From Burkholderiaceae bacterium (GTDB lineage: Bacteria; Pseudomonadota; Gammaproteobacteria; Burkholderiales; Burkholderiaceae), in assembly GCA_947380285.1 (NCBI GenBank), contig CANCQD010000122.1, positions 1-5,634 of the forward strand: a DNA stretch of 5,634 bases, written 5' to 3'. The notes beneath the pieces were generated by a model. The model made no database searches, was not told the DNA's origin, and was given only the letters and a program-made list of their open reading frames with translations. The position numbers and the translations under genes were made by a program. Shown one piece after another: positions 1-5,634 of this stretch (within the stretch, counting starts at the first letter, position 1; every line of letters begins with the position of its first letter).

Positions 1-581
1 TTCTGACCACGGCCAGAGTGAGTACGTTGATATAAAGCAGTAACAATGCCTAATGCCAAATGTAAGCCCGTTCCACTGTCGCCAATTTGCGCGCCAGTCA
101 CCATGGGAGGACCATCATCAAAACCAGTAGTTGATGCAGAGCCGCCTGCACATTGCGCTACGTTCTCATACACTTTGCAATCTTCGTATGGTCCAGGGCC
201 AAAGCCTTTAACAGAAGCCATGATCATCATTGGGTTGAGTTCTTGAATACGTTCCCAAGAAAAACCCATACGATCAAGTGCGCCTGGCGCGAAATTCTCA
301 ACCAATACGTCGCACTCTTTAATCAGGCGCTCGAGAATCTCTTTGCCTTTTTGAGTTTTAGTATTCACGGTGATCGAACGCTTGTTGTGGTTGAGCATCG
401 TGAAATACAAACTATCTGCGTCAGGAATATCGCGCAATTGACCACGAGTTGCATCACCCTCGCCTGATTTTTCTACCTTAATTACATCTGCACCAAACCA
501 AGCAAGCAACTGAGTACAAGTTGGCCCTGATTGAACGTGCGTGAAGTCGAGGATTTTGACCCCTTCTAGTGCTTTTGCCAT
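1..581 (-). CDS. Class III (CaiB/BaiF family) CoA-transferase, second Frc-like paralog, C-terminus beyond window
   Basis: This is the N-terminal 193 residues of a family III CoA-transferase; the rest lies past base 1. By hand alignment about 142 of 194 positions match the frc product encoded at 1208-2458, with one one-residue gap. Conserved landmarks include the FTHVQ segment (13-17), R104 in LDRMGF, the KVYEN segment, and the catalytic aspartate, here D168 in IGDSGTG. In Frc this aspartate forms the aspartyl-CoA thioester. Position 48 is Gln, as in Escherichia coli YfdW, not Trp as in the Oxalobacter enzyme. A notable change is GFDDGPP where Frc has GFWDGPP. The ATG at 581-579 aligns with the frc start and has an AGGA Shine-Dalgarno (590-593) 8 nt upstream. 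Likely substrates are oxalate plus a short acyl-CoA donor such as formyl- or succinyl-CoA; the exact pair cannot be read from the sequence. It lies past the frc terminator, so it is probably transcribed separately. Confidence 0.9.
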
Positions 582-1207: not shown

Positions 1208-2458
1208 TTAAACCGCTTTTGCTGCGTGCAACTTAGCAATGTCATCAGCGTTGTAGCCAAGGTCAGCCAATACTTCATCAGTGTGCTCACCCAATACTGG
1301 TGATGGACCAACTTCGATTTCCAAATCAGAGAACTTGATTGGGCTGCCGATAGTCAAATACTTGCCACGAACTTTGTGGTCAACTTCAACAATAGAACCA
1401 CTCTTACGCAAGTCTGGAGAAGCAGCCAATTCTTTCATCGAGAGAACTGGAGCACATGGAATATCGAACTTGCGGAGGATGTCCACAGCTTCGTACTTAG
1501 TCTTGTCTTTGAGCCAGTCTTCAATCGTTGCGAAAATGTCAAAAATCTTATCTTGACGAGCTTCAGCAGTCATATAGGCTGGATCGGTTGCCCACTCTGG
1601 CTTACCAATCGCACGAGTGATTGGCTCCCAAGCGTGTCCTTGAATAGTGAAGTAGATATAGGCGTTTGGATCTGTTTCCCAACCCTTACACTTCAATACC
1701 CAACCAGGCTGACCGCCACCACCAGCGTTACCTCCACGTGGAACTACGTCCGTGAATGAACCGTGTGGGTACTGTGGATACTCTTCCAAGTAACCGATCT
1801 TGTCCAAACGTTGTTGATCGCGCAACTTCACGCGGCACAAGTTCAACACTGCGTCTTGCATTGAGCAAGATACTTTTTGACCTTTGCCAGTTTTTTGACG
1901 CTGCATCAATGCAGTCAAAATACCAATTGCCAAGTGCATACCAGTATTAGAGTCACCCAAAGCAGCAGCAGAAACTGTAGGAGGACCATCCCAGAAACCA
2001 GTTGTTGAAGCAGCACCGCCAGCACACTGAGCAACGTTCTCATACACTTTTAAGTCTTCGTATGAGTGGCCATCGCTAAAGCCTTTTACAGAAGCCATAA
2101 TCATTTTTGGGTTCAATTCTTGGATACGCTTCCAAGAGAATCCCATACGATCCAAGGCACCAGGACCAAAGTTCTCAACCATCACATCAGAAGTCTGGAT
2201 CATCTTCTCTAAAACTTCTTTACCTTCTTGAGTCTTAGTATCCAAAGTTAAAGAACGCTTATTACCGTTGAGCATTGTGAAGTACAAAGCATCTGCACCT
2301 GGAATATCGCGCAATTGGCTACGTGTTACATCGCCAGAACCTGGGCGCTCTACTTTAATTACGTCAGCACCATACCAAGCCAACAACTGAGTACATGCAG
2401 GGCCTGCTTGTACGTGCGTGAAGTCAATAATGCGAATACCGTCTAATGGTTTTGTCAT
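1208..2458 (-). CDS. frc: Formyl-CoA:oxalate CoA-transferase (formyl-CoA transferase)
   Basis: This cytoplasmic enzyme transfers CoA from formyl-CoA to oxalate, producing oxalyl-CoA for the neighbouring decarboxylase. The 416-residue product matches the length of E. coli Frc/YfdW and is strongly similar along its whole length; the Oxalobacter enzyme has 428 residues. The catalytic aspartate is D169 in ALGDSNTG. The glycine loop that closes over the active site is GGGGQ at 246-250, within [15 protein letters not shown]15, Q17, R38, R104, K137 and Y139 fall at the expected family positions. Q48 makes it YfdW-like and not Oxalobacter-like (W48 there). The C-terminal [14 protein letters not shown] is typical of the CaiB/BaiF family. 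Members form interlocked dimers. The ATG has a strong AAGGAG (2467-2472) 8 nt upstream. The 81-bp AT-rich gap after oxc contains no terminator that I can see, so oxc and frc are probably co-transcribed, ending at the stem-loop at 1141-1173. Confidence 0.97.
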
Positions 2459-2539: not shown

Positions 2540-4249
2540 TTATTTCTTCGCGCCTGCTGTAGATGGGTTTAAGTTTGTTAAACGTCCACTCTCAGTACCC
2601 GCAGTTTCATCAATAACAGCATTGATGAGGGCTGGTTTACCGGCAGCAATCGCTTCTGTTAACGCTGCTTCTAATTCTGCTGGGGTAGTTACGTAGTAAC
2701 CAATGCCGCCAAACGCTTCAATCATCTTGTCATAACGAGCATCTTTAACAAACACTGTTGGTGCAACATCAGCACCGCCCGTTGGATTCACGTCAGTACC
2801 ACGGTAAACACCGTTGTTATTGAAAATAACTGTAGTAATTGGCAAGTTATAACGGCAAACAGTCTCTAATTCCATGCCGCTAAAACCAAACGCGCTATCG
2901 CCTTCAACGGCGATAGTAGGCAAGCCGCTAGTTACAGCAGCACCAATGGCATAACCCATACCGATACCCATAATCCCCCAAGTGCCTGAGTCAAAACGCT
3001 TGCGCGGCTTGTACATATCGACGATTGCACGGCAATAGTCCAATGTATTTGCACCTTCGTTTACCAAGTTCACATCTGGATTCTTTTTGATCACATCACG
3101 AATGACACGCAACGCACCATGGAAGTTCATTGGATGCGCCTCTTTAGCCAATGTCTCTGCCATCTTCGCGGTGTTCTTGTCTTTCTTCTCGGTAATCGCA
3201 GCGATCCACTCAGCGCTTGGCTTAGGAACAGCAGAGATACCTTTTAACAATTCGCCAACGCATGAACCGATATCGCCAATCAATGGAGCAGCGATTTGTA
3301 CGTTGCTATCCACTTCGTTTGCCTGAATGTCGATCTGAATAAATTTCTTAGGATCCTTGCCCCAAGTTTTACCTTTACCATGCGCAAGCAACCAATTCAA
3401 ACGTGCGCCAACCAATAACACCGCATCAGCTTCAGCCAATACAAATGAACGGGCCGCAGAAGCAGATTGCGGATGATTGTCTGGCAATAAACCTTTAGCC
3501 ATCGACATCGGCAAGTATGGGATACCAGATGTTTCGATTAAGTCACGAATCTCTTTATCAGCCTGAGCATAAGCAGCGCCCTTACCCAAGAGAATCAACG
3601 GACGCTTAGCGCCCTTCAACACATCTAATGCACGAGCAACTGCATCAGCTGCGGGGATTTGACGTGGAACTGGATCGATTACCTTGAAGATCGATTTCTT
3701 GGCTTCTTCAGCAGGCATGGTTTGGGCAAGTAACTGGGCTGGCAAGTCTAAATACACGCCGCCTGGACGACCAGAAACTGCAGCGCGGATTGCACGAGCA
3801 AAACCGATGCCGATATCTTCAATGTGATTAATACGATAGGCTGCTTTGCAATAAGGCTTAGCAGCATTGAGCTGATCCATCTCTTCGTAGTCACCTTGTT
3901 GCAAGTCAACGATTTCACGCTCGCTTGAACCAGAGATCAAAATCATTGGAAAGCAGTTCACGGTAGCGTTTGCTAACGCTGTCAAACCATTTAAGAATCC
4001 TGGAGCAGAAACGGTCATGCAAATGCCAGGCTTTTGAGTCATGTAGCCAGCAATCGCGGCAGCATTGCCAGCGTGCTGCTCGTGACGGAAGCCAATAAAA
4101 CGCAAACCTTCGGCCTGCGCTAAACGACATAAGTCAGTAATTGGAATACCAACGAGACCAAAAATTGTATCGAGGTCATTTGCTTTCAAAGCGTCAATGA
4201 CGAGATGAAAGCCATCGGTTAATTGTGTGTTTTGATTATCTGTTGTCAT
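2540..4249 (-). CDS. oxc: Oxalyl-CoA decarboxylase (thiamine diphosphate dependent)
   Basis: This cytoplasmic enzyme converts oxalyl-CoA to formyl-CoA and CO2, consuming a proton. With Frc it forms the oxalate cycle. The 569-residue protein matches the roughly 568 residues of Oxalobacter Oxc and aligns throughout. The N-terminal PYR domain (about 10-170) carries the cofactor-activating glutamate E57 in FRHEQHAG and the active-site pair Y121-E122 in GDYEEMDQ. The middle domain (about 195-335), which binds an ADP activator in known Oxc, contains [10 protein letters not shown]. The PP domain (about 375-550) has the ThDP/Mg motif starting at G450-D451-S452 and ending at N477-N479, followed by Y482. 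The C-terminal SGR (554-556) matches the substrate-binding end of the family. The ATG is the only sensible start: a stop codon lies in frame 9 nt upstream and residues from about 10 onward are conserved. No Shine-Dalgarno precedes it, which is unlike frc and the regulator gene. Confidence 0.97.
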
Positions 4250-4263
4250 AGAAATTTATATAA

Positions 4264-4300
4264 AAATTGCGGTTCCGCTCTTGTAGAGCCAAGGCAATTT
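4264..4300 (-). other. Stem-loop in the oxc 5' leader
   Basis: The outer arms are AAATTGC (4264-4270) and GCAATTT (4294-4300). They enclose an inner perfect stem, GCTCT (4277-4281) with AGAGC (4285-4289), separated by a 6x4 internal loop. In the minus-strand transcript the hairpin is followed by a short U run and an AU-rich stretch, then the oxc ATG 14 nt later. A second small hairpin just upstream (4299-4312, TTAGC stem with a GAAA loop in the transcript) overlaps its outer arm by two bases. The element could act as a weak attenuator or influence translation of a start codon that lacks a Shine-Dalgarno. Its function is not shown. Confidence 0.45.
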
Positions 4301-4365
4301 AGCTTTCGCTAACGTCTCCAATGTAGTTATTAATCGCACAACGGGCTTTGTATCCCGCTTAGGCT

Positions 4366-4378
4366 GAGATGAATATTA
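4366..4378 (-). promoter_or_regulatory. Predicted oxc promoter (-10 element and start point)
   Basis: On the minus strand TAATAT (4378-4373) matches four of six bases of the TATAAT consensus. It places a transcription start near 4366 and leaves a leader of about 117 nt before oxc. There is no good -35 hexamer at the right distance. Instead the TTGAC-N4-GTCAA dyad is centred at -41.5, as expected when an activator of the Crp/Fnr class replaces the -35 contact. The prediction rests on spacing and motif only. Confidence 0.55.
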
Positions 4379-4399
4379 GGCTTGGGGAGAGGGTTCATC

Positions 4400-4415
4400 A
4401 TTGACTTCGGTCAAT
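4400..4415. promoter_or_regulatory. FNR/FixK-like operator upstream of oxc
   Basis: The 16-bp sequence ATTGAC-TTCG-GTCAAT is a perfect dyad. Its core TTGAC-N4-GTCAA has the size and half-site of FNR (TTGAT-N4-ATCAA) and FixK-type boxes. It lies between the Crp/Fnr-type regulator gene and oxc, centred between 4407 and 4408. The adjacent regulator is the obvious candidate to bind it, since its recognition helix has the E-x-x-S-R pattern known to read TTGA. No other copy of this dyad was found in the other gene-upstream regions of the window. Confidence 0.65.
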
Positions 4416-4427
4416 TTCCCTCCAAAT

Positions 4428-4441
4428 CCTGTAATTACAGG
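4428..4441. repeat. 14-bp perfect palindrome after the regulator gene
   Basis: CCTGTAATTACAGG is a perfect palindrome without a spacer, 12 nt beyond the regulator stop codon and just upstream of the FNR-like box. A 10-bp inverted repeat, GCAG-TT-CTGC (4441-4450), abuts it. There is no T run after either on the minus strand, so an intrinsic terminator is unlikely. It may be a second operator for the oxc promoter, or chance. Confidence 0.4.
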
Positions 4442-4453
4442 CAGTTCTGCTGA

Positions 4454-5071
4454 TTAGACAAAAAGCTCTTTGTGCTTCGTTTTGAGCCGACTCAAAGTCT
4501 CGGGAGAAAGATTTAGGTAGGCGGCCAGCTCTTTTTTAGGAAGCAGCTCAAATAAGTCCTCGTATTTACGCAAGAAACGCTCTACCCGACCTGGGGCATC
4601 GAGCATATGCAGGGTAATGGTGTGAGCCATGATTTCACTCATGAGGCGCATGACCTCAAACTCGAAATTCTCCTTCAAGGGCTTATGCTGCTCCAGAAAT
4701 TCTGCCCATTTCTTCATCGGCATCCGAGCTACGCGGGCCTTAGTAACGCACGCAATACTGTAGGGGGCAGCGGTTTTAAGGCGCCAGGCGGCATAGCTAG
4801 TTTCAATATCTTTTTCGATAGCAAAACGCAAAATCATCTCTTTTGCATCCGCACTAGAGACAATGCGCTTCAGAATTCCATCCAAAACAAAGTACTGCTC
4901 CATTTGGTGGTCACCTTGGTGCAGCAAGATTTCGGATTTTTTAAGCTCATCGATTTCTAAATGACGCTCTAAATCAGCCATTGCTGAGGGGTCTAGGCTT
5001 TTTAAAACCGAGTTTTGACTCAGTTGCAGACGAATCAGGTTTTTTTCGGGGTGCTTATCTAATACGGTCAT
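4454..5071 (-). CDS. Crp/Fnr-family transcriptional regulator
   Basis: The 205-residue protein has the Crp/Fnr layout: an N-terminal cyclic-nucleotide-binding-like beta-roll (about 22-125, including HQGDHQMEQYFVLDG), a long dimerisation helix (about 131-158), and a C-terminal winged helix-turn-helix (about 160-205). The recognition helix reads SPETLSRL, with E191, S194 and R195 at the spacing FNR uses to contact TTGA half-sites. Only one cysteine is present (C108), so an FNR-type iron-sulfur oxygen sensor is excluded. The Arg-Ser pair that binds cAMP phosphate in CRP is not evident; the region reads LKTAAP. The effector is unknown. The ATG has a GGAG (5081-5084) 9 nt upstream and a closer AGGA. 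It points toward oxc across a 204-bp gap holding a matching dyad, so it is probably the local activator of the oxalate genes. Confidence 0.9.
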   Translation of the reverse strand: MTVLDKHPEKNLIRLQLSQNSVLKSLDPSAMADLERHLEIDELKKSEILLHQGDHQMEQYFVLDGILKRIVSSADAKEMILRFAIEKDIETSYAAWRLKTAAPYSIACVTKARVARMPMKKWAEFLEQHKPLKENFEFEVMRLMSEIMAHTITLHMLDAPGRVERFLRKYEDLFELLPKKELAAYLNLSPETLSRLKTKHKELFV

Positions 5072-5094
5072 GAATCCTTACTCCAAGACCATCT

Positions 5095-5100
5095 ATTGTA
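5095..5100 (-). promoter_or_regulatory. Possible -10 element for the regulator gene
   Basis: TACAAT (minus strand, 5100-5095) matches five of six consensus bases. It would start a transcript near 5088, giving a leader of about 17 nt that contains the GGAG ribosome binding site. No convincing -35 hexamer is seen 16-18 bp upstream, so the call is tentative. Confidence 0.4.
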
Positions 5101-5154
5101 GGCTTTTTTACTCTCGAAAACCCTTATTTCCGACTTAGATTGGCGCAAATCCAC

Positions 5155-5160
5155 TAGAAT
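5155..5160 (+). promoter_or_regulatory. Possible -10 element for the riboswitch-btuB transcript
   Basis: TAGAAT matches five of six bases of TATAAT and would start transcription near 5167, right where the cobalamin riboswitch begins. No clear -35 hexamer lies at the standard distance. It is divergent from, and about 55 bp away from, the candidate promoter of the regulator gene. Confidence 0.4.
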
Positions 5161-5165
5161 CTGGG

Positions 5166-5357
5166 AGTCGTGGTGCTTTATTGCAGTGCAATAAAGTTAA
5201 ACGGGAAACACTAAACGTGTGCTGCCCCCGCAACGGTAGGTAAATGCGTCTTTACTAACTGTCTAAGACGTCAGGAATCTGACAAAGCCACTGTGCGCGT
5301 CAATCGCATGGGAAGGCCAGATTCTGATATTTACTAGCCCGGATACCGGCCAAGACA
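5166..5357 (+). promoter_or_regulatory. Cobalamin (B12) riboswitch aptamer
   Basis: The leader contains the conserved blocks of the cobalamin riboswitch family in order. First are a GGTGC start and a variable hairpin (CTTTATTGC/GCAATAAAG, 5176-5196). GTTAAACGGGAA and the CTGCCCCCGCAACGG segment (5222-5236) follow, then a small hairpin GTCAG-GAAT-CTGAC (5270-5283). AAGCCACTG (5285-5293) and GCATGGGAAGG (5306-5316) form the B12-box region. AGCCC plus GGATACCGGCC (5336-5351) closes the core. It should bind a cobalamin and turn down expression of the receptor gene at 5501. The exact ends are approximate. Confidence 0.97.
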
Positions 5358-5360
5358 GGT

Positions 5361-5500
5361 GGAATTTTGCGGACGGGGATCTTCGCGCGCCAATTATGCG
5401 CAACCCGCGCTTTATTGACGCCTGAACTCCTGCACGGGAAATTCTGTTCGACCCAGTTAACGGGGAAGTTAACTAGGCATTCGATAACAGAAAGTGAATC
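5361..5500 (+). promoter_or_regulatory. Riboswitch expression platform and btuB translation start region
   Basis: A nested hairpin ends just before the start codon. The outer arms TTCTGTT (5442-5448) and AACAGAA (5486-5492) pair, CGA (5449-5451) and TCG (5481-5483) extend the stem past a bulge, and an inner stem AGTTAAC/GTTAACT (5455-5474) encloses GGGGAA. The only weak ribosome-binding-like sequence, AGAAAG (5489-5494), overlaps the outer 3' arm. Further up, GCGGA and TCTTCGC (5369-5386) can form a small stem with CGGGG in its loop. That loop is complementary to CCCCG (5226-5230) in the aptamer, a candidate for the loop-loop contact of this riboswitch class. No U-run terminator is visible, so control is probably at translation initiation. 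Confidence 0.6.
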
Positions 5501-5634
5501 ATGAAGCAGCAGTCAAAACAGCAGAGGATCGCCCTCGTTTGCGGCGCCCTTTTCACGCTATACCTTACCCCTTCAGTCTTTGCGCAAAGCAACCAAAACA
5601 CAGTCATTGTTACCGGTTCACGCTTTGAGGAAAA
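5501..5634 (+). CDS. btuB: TonB-dependent outer-membrane receptor, probable vitamin B12 transporter BtuB, N-terminus only
   Basis: Only the first 44 codons are in the window. The product begins with a basic N-terminus (MKQQSKQQR), a hydrophobic stretch (about 10-26) and a likely signal peptidase site after VFA (residue 28), so export to the outer membrane is expected. The mature start carries TVIVTGSRFEE, a TonB-box/plug opening much like the LVVTANRF of E. coli BtuB. In the family, the plug-and-barrel protein moves cobalamins across the outer membrane using TonB-ExbBD energy. The cobalamin riboswitch directly upstream strongly supports B12 as the substrate. The ATG at 5501 was chosen because it begins a proper signal peptide. 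Its ribosome binding site is weak and probably masked by the leader hairpin. Confidence 0.88.
   Translation, partial: MKQQSKQQRIALVCGALFTLYLTPSVFAQSNQNTVIVTGSRFEE

What the first reader, a model, noticed from the sequence alone, without database searches (positions are those of the whole stretch)
4366..4415. Class II activator promoter geometry linking the Crp/Fnr regulator to oxc
Seen: the perfect dyad ATTGAC-TTCG-GTCAAT is centred at 4407.5 and a TAATAT -10 lies at 4378-4373 on the minus strand. The implied start at 4366 puts the dyad centre exactly at -41.5. Known: FNR and CRP class II promoters have this spacing and often lack a good -35, and the E-x-x-S-R recognition helix of FNR reads TTGA. 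Inference: the regulator at 4454-5071, which has E191/S194/R195, binds here and activates oxc-frc. The dedicated Crp/Fnr-type control of oxalate degradation appears self-contained in this locus.
Basis: partly seen in the sequence, partly recalled or inferred. Interest (0 to 1): 0.72.

Follow-up and report, generated by a model that had tools for sequence, protein, structure and literature searches.

The report
Dedicated switch for bacterial oxalate degradation
A small DNA-binding protein encoded beside the oxalate-degrading genes has a matching, strictly positioned landing site in front of those genes, and the pair is kept together across many related bacteria, so it is very probably the on-switch for breaking down oxalate.

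Summary
The dyad ATTGAC-N4-GTCAAT (4400-4415) and the -10 TAATAT (4378-4373, minus strand) are where stated. In 80 of 80 fetched Polynucleobacter loci with the regulator, oxc follows and a dyad lies between. The best -10 sits 30 nt from the dyad centre in 84 of 92 rows (one duplicate), although dyad-to-ATG distance varies. Outside the genus the regulator is mostly divergent from oxc-frc or lies between frc and oxc. A dyad (at most one mismatch, within 400 bp) precedes oxc in 58 of 58 testable regulator-bearing genomes and 1 of 15 regulator-less ones; that one is a different, TTGAT-N4-ATCAA, sequence 361 bp away. The -10 at 30-31 nt appears toward oxc/frc, not toward the regulator. The site does not track the FNR paralogue. 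E191, S194 and R195 are invariant in 141 of 141 proteins. Best reading: a dedicated class II Crp/Fnr activator of oxalate catabolism without the CRP cAMP contacts or the FNR cysteines. Binding, transcription start and effector are not shown. My open-access searches found no report of it. 'Self-contained' fits Polynucleobacter; elsewhere the regulon looks wider.

The parts
4400..4415 (.). operator dyad ATTGAC-TTCG-GTCAAT
   Evidence: exact match; TTGAC in 92 of 92 rows, GTCAA in all but two rows at single columns, loop variable (rows L080 and L141 are the same contig)
4373..4378 (-). -10 element TAATAT, 30 nt from the dyad centre
   Evidence: at this exact offset TAATAT in 44, TAAGAT in 38 and TAACAT in 2 of 92 rows
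4366..4366 (-). predicted transcription start of oxc; dyad centre at -41.5
   Evidence: inferred from the -10 position only, not mapped
4416..4428 (.). conserved upstream flank of the dyad (GATTT-N2-GGGGAA consensus, read on the minus strand)
   Evidence: raised information at most of offsets -21 to -9 in 92 rows; role unknown
4454..5071 (-). Crp/Fnr-family regulator, 205 aa
4475..4504 (-). codons of the predicted recognition helix (residues 190-199, PETLSRLKTK)
   Evidence: helix 190-199 in the model; E191, S194 and R195 in 141 of 141 proteins
2540..4249 (-). oxc, oxalyl-CoA decarboxylase
   Evidence: TIGR03254 986 bits, cut-off 739
1208..2458 (-). frc, formyl-CoA transferase, same strand, 81 bp behind oxc
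   Evidence: TIGR03253 724 bits, cut-off 504
4250..4366 (-). oxc 5' leader with three hairpins in many Polynucleobacter
   Evidence: covariation above shuffles and slid controls in 57 of 72 leaders given to the count; no Rfam family at gathering score, only a chance-level match
3..581 (-). second frc-like CoA-transferase, cut by the window edge; membership of the operon not shown
   Evidence: PF02515; only a 3-mismatch dyad-like stretch at 608-623 upstream

Best explanation
The regulator at 4454-5071 is a dedicated Crp/Fnr-family activator of oxalate catabolism. As a dimer it binds TTGAC-N4-GTCAA, placed at -41.5 (or -42.5) of the oxc-frc promoter, and recruits RNA polymerase in class II fashion to a promoter that lacks a good -35. 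Shown here by comparison: the site, its nearly fixed distance to the -10, its direction toward oxc/frc and its link to the presence of this regulator. Inferred: that this protein binds the site, that it activates, and that the signal is an oxalate-pathway molecule (oxalate, oxalyl-CoA or formyl-CoA), because the cAMP contacts and the FNR cysteines are missing.
For: Dyad between regulator and oxc in 80 of 80 Polynucleobacter loci; best -10 at offset 30 in 84 of 92 rows. Composite dyad plus -10 in 148 of 186 genomes of the genus; the pattern read backwards in 8 of 186 by my count of the listing. Outside the genus: dyad with at most one mismatch before oxc in 58 of 58 testable regulator-bearing genomes (55 exact TTGAY-N4-RTCAA), before a TPP-enzyme gene standing in for oxc in 7 of 7, before separately placed frc in 15 of 20; 0 of 8 oxc without the regulator; in the genus set 0 of 7 for TTGAC-N4-GTCAA. 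Chance level of the loose rule is 0.08 per 400 bp, of the exact one 0.02. Oxc on another contig or about 5 kb from the regulator still carries it: exact in 4 of 7 testable genomes, one mismatch in the other 3. -10 at 30/31 toward the target in 44 of 50 sites upstream and 7 of 8 downstream of the regulator gene, against 3 of 50 and 1 of 8 in the opposite direction. Not FNR: of 20 listed genus genomes without the FNR paralogue 17 have the regulator, and 16 of these have the composite motif. E191, S194 and R195 in 141 of 141.
Against: No binding, expression or start-site data. The bare dyad occurs 3-5 times per genome against 1-4 for its reversed control in five genomes, so the motif alone is not specific. 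At least five regulator-less genus genomes (G464, G472, G482, G518, G519) have one composite match; in G472 and G482, whose places are listed, it lies on another contig than oxc. One of 15 regulator-less oxc promoters (G484) has TTGATAAAAATCAA 361 bp upstream. In 8 of 58 oxc promoters outside the genus the best -10-like hexamer is not at 30-31, among them the sister group L228/L232/L239 and two unlinked oxc. Pseudogene regulators (L126-L129) keep an intact dyad, so either loss is recent or the site has another reader. On the oxc tree the presence label changes only six times, two of them forced by strong branches. Five of 20 frc promoters lack the dyad. Four Polynucleobacter species are described as not assimilating oxalate (PMC5018217, passages).
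Confidence: 0.83

Rival explanations
1. The dyad is a site for the oxygen sensor FNR, which Polynucleobacter also encodes and whose recognition helix has the same E-x-x-S-R pattern.
For: An FNR-type paralogue with N-terminal cysteines and the helix ETVSR was read in two genomes and found in 153 of 186; TTGAC-N4-GTCAA is one base per half-site from the FNR consensus TTGAT-N4-ATCAA (recalled).
Against: 16 of the 17 listed FNR-less genomes with the regulator keep the composite motif. Six genomes with an FNR homologue (E <= 1e-40; in G484 and G519 with a stop in the match) and oxc but no regulator lack TTGAC-N4-GTCAA before oxc; one of them, G484, has a TTGAT-N4-ATCAA 361 bp upstream. Occasional co-binding by FNR is not excluded.
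Confidence: 0.05
2. The regulator binds the dyad but represses oxc, released by an oxalate-pathway ligand.
For: The site overlaps where a -35 would be, so a bound protein could also block polymerase (inference).
Against: The spacing is that of class II activation and is held at 30-31 nt; the promoter has no recognisable -35, so it would be weak without help.
Confidence: 0.08
3. The inverted repeat works as RNA (hairpin or terminator of the regulator gene), not as a protein site.
For: It lies downstream of the regulator gene in Polynucleobacter and can form a short stem.
Against: No terminator-like site in 4200-5200; in the Polynucleobacter group the arms hardly vary and show no compensatory pair changes while the loop varies; outside the genus it lies between divergent genes or in front of unlinked oxc.
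Confidence: 0.02
4. Conservation reflects shared ancestry of the region, not function.
For: Polynucleobacter loci are close relatives.
Against: Dyad and -10 stay fixed while the rest of the gap diverges and changes length (dyad to ATG 107-183); dyads occur in other genomes of the order in other gene orders and rarely without the regulator.
Confidence: 0.02

Closest known systems
FNR (Crp/Fnr superfamily)
   Different: One cysteine instead of the Fe-S set, TTGAC rather than TTGAT (consensus recalled), no wing after the recognition helix in the model, a metabolic pathway instead of the oxygen response (inferred).
E. coli CRP and cAMP-binding relatives (GlxR, M. tuberculosis CRP)
   Different: cAMP contacts (recalled) not kept: CRP E72, R82 and S83 fall on S92, A102 and P103 in my alignment.
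Short Crp/Fnr protein of Cytophaga hutchinsonii (PDB 3dn7)
   Same: Best sequence match among solved structures (E 7.4e-9), ending at a similar point of the helix.
   Different: Function not given in the listing; no call here ties it to oxalate.
NtcA (2-oxoglutarate-binding Crp/Fnr protein)
   Different: Binds GTA-N8-TAC and controls nitrogen metabolism (recalled).

Membership tests
Crp/Fnr superfamily | cNMP-binding-type N-terminal domain | tested here: met
Crp/Fnr superfamily | full C-terminal winged HTH (PF13545) | tested here: inconclusive
   No PF13545 hit in the window protein; in three relatives only profile positions 18-42 of 70 at most, below cut-off, though the database lists it for P0078; the model ends just after the recognition helix
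FNR | cysteines for a [4Fe-4S] cluster | tested here: not met
   one cysteine in the translation; the FNR paralogue of the genus has an N-terminal cysteine set
FNR | E-x-x-S-R recognition helix | tested here: met
   141 of 141
FNR | TTGAT-N4-ATCAA operator (recalled) | tested here: not met
   TTGAC in 92 of 92 rows; outside the genus 38 of 58 oxc promoters are TTGAC-N4-GTCAA, others mix C/T and G/A
CRP | cAMP-contact residues (recalled) | tested here: not met
   E72, R82 and S83 replaced by S, A and an invariant P (alignment-based)
class II activator-dependent promoter | activator site centred near -41.5, judged by the distance to the -10 | tested here: met
   offset 30 in 84 of 92, 30-31 in 50 of 58, not in the opposite direction
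class II activator-dependent promoter | mapped start and activator-dependent transcription | not testable with these tools
   needs RNA 5' ends and mutants

The most novel reading that the evidence does not exclude
This is the founding case of an unreported Crp/Fnr subfamily, wingless and free of the cAMP and Fe-S signatures, that senses an oxalate-pathway molecule in the pocket used for cAMP in CRP. It would control an oxalate/formate regulon across Burkholderiales: TctC or antiporter uptake, oxc, frc, formate-tetrahydrofolate ligase, and a TPP enzyme that stands in for oxc in some lineages.
Probability: 0.5. Interest if true: 0.68.

Novelty: new member of a known kind. Interest (0 to 1): 0.58.

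Why it matters
In the papers I could search, the oxc-frc pathway of oxalate degradation has no named dedicated regulator of this family. A named protein, a named 14-bp site and a near-fixed promoter geometry make its control directly testable, give a motif for finding other oxalate genes, and suggest a new ligand for a very large regulator family. It also raises a puzzle: Polynucleobacter keeps the switch and the genes, yet several species are described as not assimilating oxalate.

Tried and rejected
The window's own genome could not be searched because none is held. The bare motif count in five genomes is near its reversed control, so I used dyad plus -10 instead. Recurrent second hits there, such as TTGACTGCAGTCAA..., read as open coding frames by eye and were set aside. 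RNAalifold found only five pairs in the leader; the three-hairpin structure that I named did better but stays a side observation, and it was counted on 57 of 72 leaders: the 15 left out include the more divergent L065, L067, L071, L072, L074, L075, L077 and L078. A search of the plasmid collection for the regulator gave no match. Rejected: the dyad as a -35 (no -10 at 16-18 nt on either strand, by eye), as a terminator, as an FNR site.

Literature: nine searches of an open-licence PMC library listed no paper that I could recognise as describing a Crp/Fnr regulator of oxc-frc; subscription journals and regulon databases were not searched. Passages only were seen of PMC12531629, PMC4576408, PMC5209427, PMC5987411, PMC3308952 and PMC5018217; all other papers were seen as search listings.

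Rows dropped or not tested: oxc of G843 and G664 (no upstream sequence), G909 (no oxc or frc in the fetched stretch); identical upstream stretches counted once. Among the 92 rows, L141 repeats L080, four have a broken regulator gene and one a broken oxc. L130, where both genes are fragments, has no TTGAC-N4-GTCAA and is not among the 92. Genus genomes beyond the fetched loci were covered only by the pattern search, whose list of places was cut.

Full report
What is there. The window is from Polynucleobacter or very close to it: the regulator is 98% identical to that of Polynucleobacter sp. AP-Kaivos-20-H2. On the minus strand lie, in order, a 205-aa Crp/Fnr-family regulator (4454-5071), a 204-bp gap, oxc (2540-4249), frc (1208-2458) and, further on, the start of a second frc-like gene (3-581). 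The gap holds the exact dyad ATTGAC-TTCG-GTCAAT (4400-4415) and TAATAT at 4378-4373.

Conservation inside the genus. A scan of genome contigs gave 100 relatives of the regulator, of which the best 80 loci were kept. In 80 of 80 oxc follows on the same strand and a TTGA-N6-TCAA dyad lies between. The distance from dyad to ATG varies from 107 to 183, and several lineages lack a large part of the leader, yet the distance from dyad centre to the -10 hardly does. With the window and 11 further loci (92 rows, one a duplicate, five with a broken regulator or oxc) the best -10-like hexamer is at offset 30 in 84, at 31 in 3, at 28 in 3, and at 29 and 36 in one each. TTGAC is in 92 of 92 rows; the N4 loop varies. 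In L143 much of the gap differs, but dyad and TATCAT keep the same spacing. Across 186 genomes of the genus the composite dyad plus -10 pattern occurs in 148, mostly once and, in the listed places, mostly at oxc by eye; the reversed pattern occurs in 8 by my count. At least five of the 148 lack the regulator (G464, G472, G482, G518, G519). The bare dyad is near its control level.

Conservation outside the genus. A search of 399 genomes of the order with the Collimonas homologue P0064 found the family in 76 at E <= 1e-30. I fetched the surroundings of all 69 that are not among the 7 Polynucleobacter hits. Gene order differs: mostly regulator and oxc-frc divergent; in some the regulator lies between frc and oxc with a dyad before each. 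A dyad TTGAY-N4-RTCAA with at most one mismatch within 400 bp precedes oxc in 58 of 58 testable genomes (55 exact; 38 strict TTGAC-N4-GTCAA), 7 of 7 operons with a TPP enzyme in the place of oxc, and 15 of 20 separately placed frc genes; the best -10 is at 30-31 nt in 50, 5 and 15 of these. Of 68 genomes with a testable gene 67 have at least one dyad; the exception, G664, is cut by contig ends. The background in the fetched stretches is 0.02 exact and 0.08 one-mismatch matches per 400 bp, itself raised by likely real sites.

Direction. Read toward oxc/frc the best -10 is at 30-31 nt in 44 of 50 sites upstream and 7 of 8 downstream of the regulator gene; read in the opposite direction, in 3 of 50 and 1 of 8. 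This is an internal control: the geometry serves oxc/frc, not the regulator's own promoter.

Presence and absence. 75 of the 399 genomes have oxc at E <= 1e-200, 8 of them without the regulator. None of these 8 has a dyad by the loose rule, although two of their oxc proteins (79% and 77% identical) are among the closest to the window's outside Polynucleobacter. In the genus set, of 7 regulator-less oxc genes none has TTGAC-N4-GTCAA upstream; one (G484, L136) has TTGATAAAAATCAA 361 bp upstream, a match by the loose rule. Where oxc sits on another contig or about 5 kb from the regulator, 4 of 7 testable promoters have an exact dyad and 3 have one mismatch, the latter being weak evidence at that chance level; a -10-like hexamer at 30-31 is missing in two of the four exact ones. 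On a quick oxc tree of 79 rows the label changes 6 times, only 2 forced by strong branches, so the independent evidence is smaller than the raw counts.

Not FNR. Polynucleobacter has an FNR-type paralogue with the same E-x-x-S-R pattern, found in 153 of 186 genomes. Of the 20 listed without it (13 more are not listed) 17 carry the regulator, and 16 of these have the composite motif; G413 is the exception. Six genomes with an FNR homologue and oxc but no regulator lack TTGAC-N4-GTCAA before oxc; in two of them, G484 and G519, the FNR match holds a stop. Four genomes with a broken regulator (L126-L129) still have an intact dyad; in L131, with an open regulator and a broken oxc, the dyad has decayed by a base.

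The protein. 141 of 141 aligned regulators have E191, S194 and R195; the cAMP contacts of CRP are not kept; there is one cysteine. The AlphaFold2 model (mean pLDDT 88.7) has the CRP/FNR fold and stops just after the recognition helix, without a wing. NtcA with 2-oxoglutarate, listed, is a precedent for a small acid as ligand; the effector here is a guess.

Wider regulon. In the fetched stretches of regulator-bearing genomes the exact TTGAY-N4-RTCAA dyad also lies before genes similar to formate-tetrahydrofolate ligase (6 of 6), TctC (16 of 36) and the oxalate/formate antiporter (3 of 13); in the regulator-less set 0 of 1 each. The families were checked on one or two representatives each. Spacing to a -10 is less regular there.

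Physiology and print. Four Polynucleobacter species are described as not assimilating oxalate (PMC5018217, passages), and an earlier study says the same of its strain (PMC3308952, passage), so the pathway may serve energy, detoxification or co-metabolism; this is open. I found no report of this regulator in the searches named under Tried and rejected. Verdict: the finding is real, well supported as regulation, and a new member of a known kind.

Noticed in passing
window 4259-4366, minus strand: The oxc leader of many Polynucleobacter can fold into three hairpins with covariation (score 0.183 against 0.147 +- 0.008 in shuffles and at most 0.074 when slid; 57 of 72 leaders) and a conserved GGAGA; no Rfam family, only a chance-level match. 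It is missing in lineages with a 141-146 bp gap (L051, L054, L063, L064, L073).
   Followed up: partly
window 5154-5368, plus strand: Cobalamin riboswitch (RF00174, 76 bits) in front of an open frame that starts at 5501 and runs off the window.
   Followed up: no
L190, L191, L192, L200, L202, L205, L212: In these seven loci a TPP enzyme only 25-28% identical to oxc takes its place behind the same kind of dyad and before frc. Three were scanned: best NCBIfam match PRK05858, below its cut-off. Perhaps another route from an oxalate-related compound.
   Followed up: partly
L252, L255, L256, L257 (upstream of oxc): Four of the eight regulator-less oxc promoters share a different sequence near TGATATATCA-N-ATACC (seen by eye; L250 has a partial one), which may be the site of another regulator.
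   Followed up: no
window 4428-4441: A second perfect palindrome, CCTGTAATTACAGG, lies next to the dyad; similar but imperfect forms are seen in a few of the closest relatives shown.
   Followed up: no
L023, L048: P. yangtzensis and P. sinensis loci carry regulator, dyad and oxc, yet these species are described as not assimilating oxalate (PMC5018217, passages).
   Followed up: no
L228, L232, L239 and L229, L246, L248, L249: A sister group of regulators with a different C-terminus (mostly LHLNISPETLSR); oxc in L228, L232 and L239 has two exact dyad-like sites but no -10 at 30-31 nt.
   Followed up: partly
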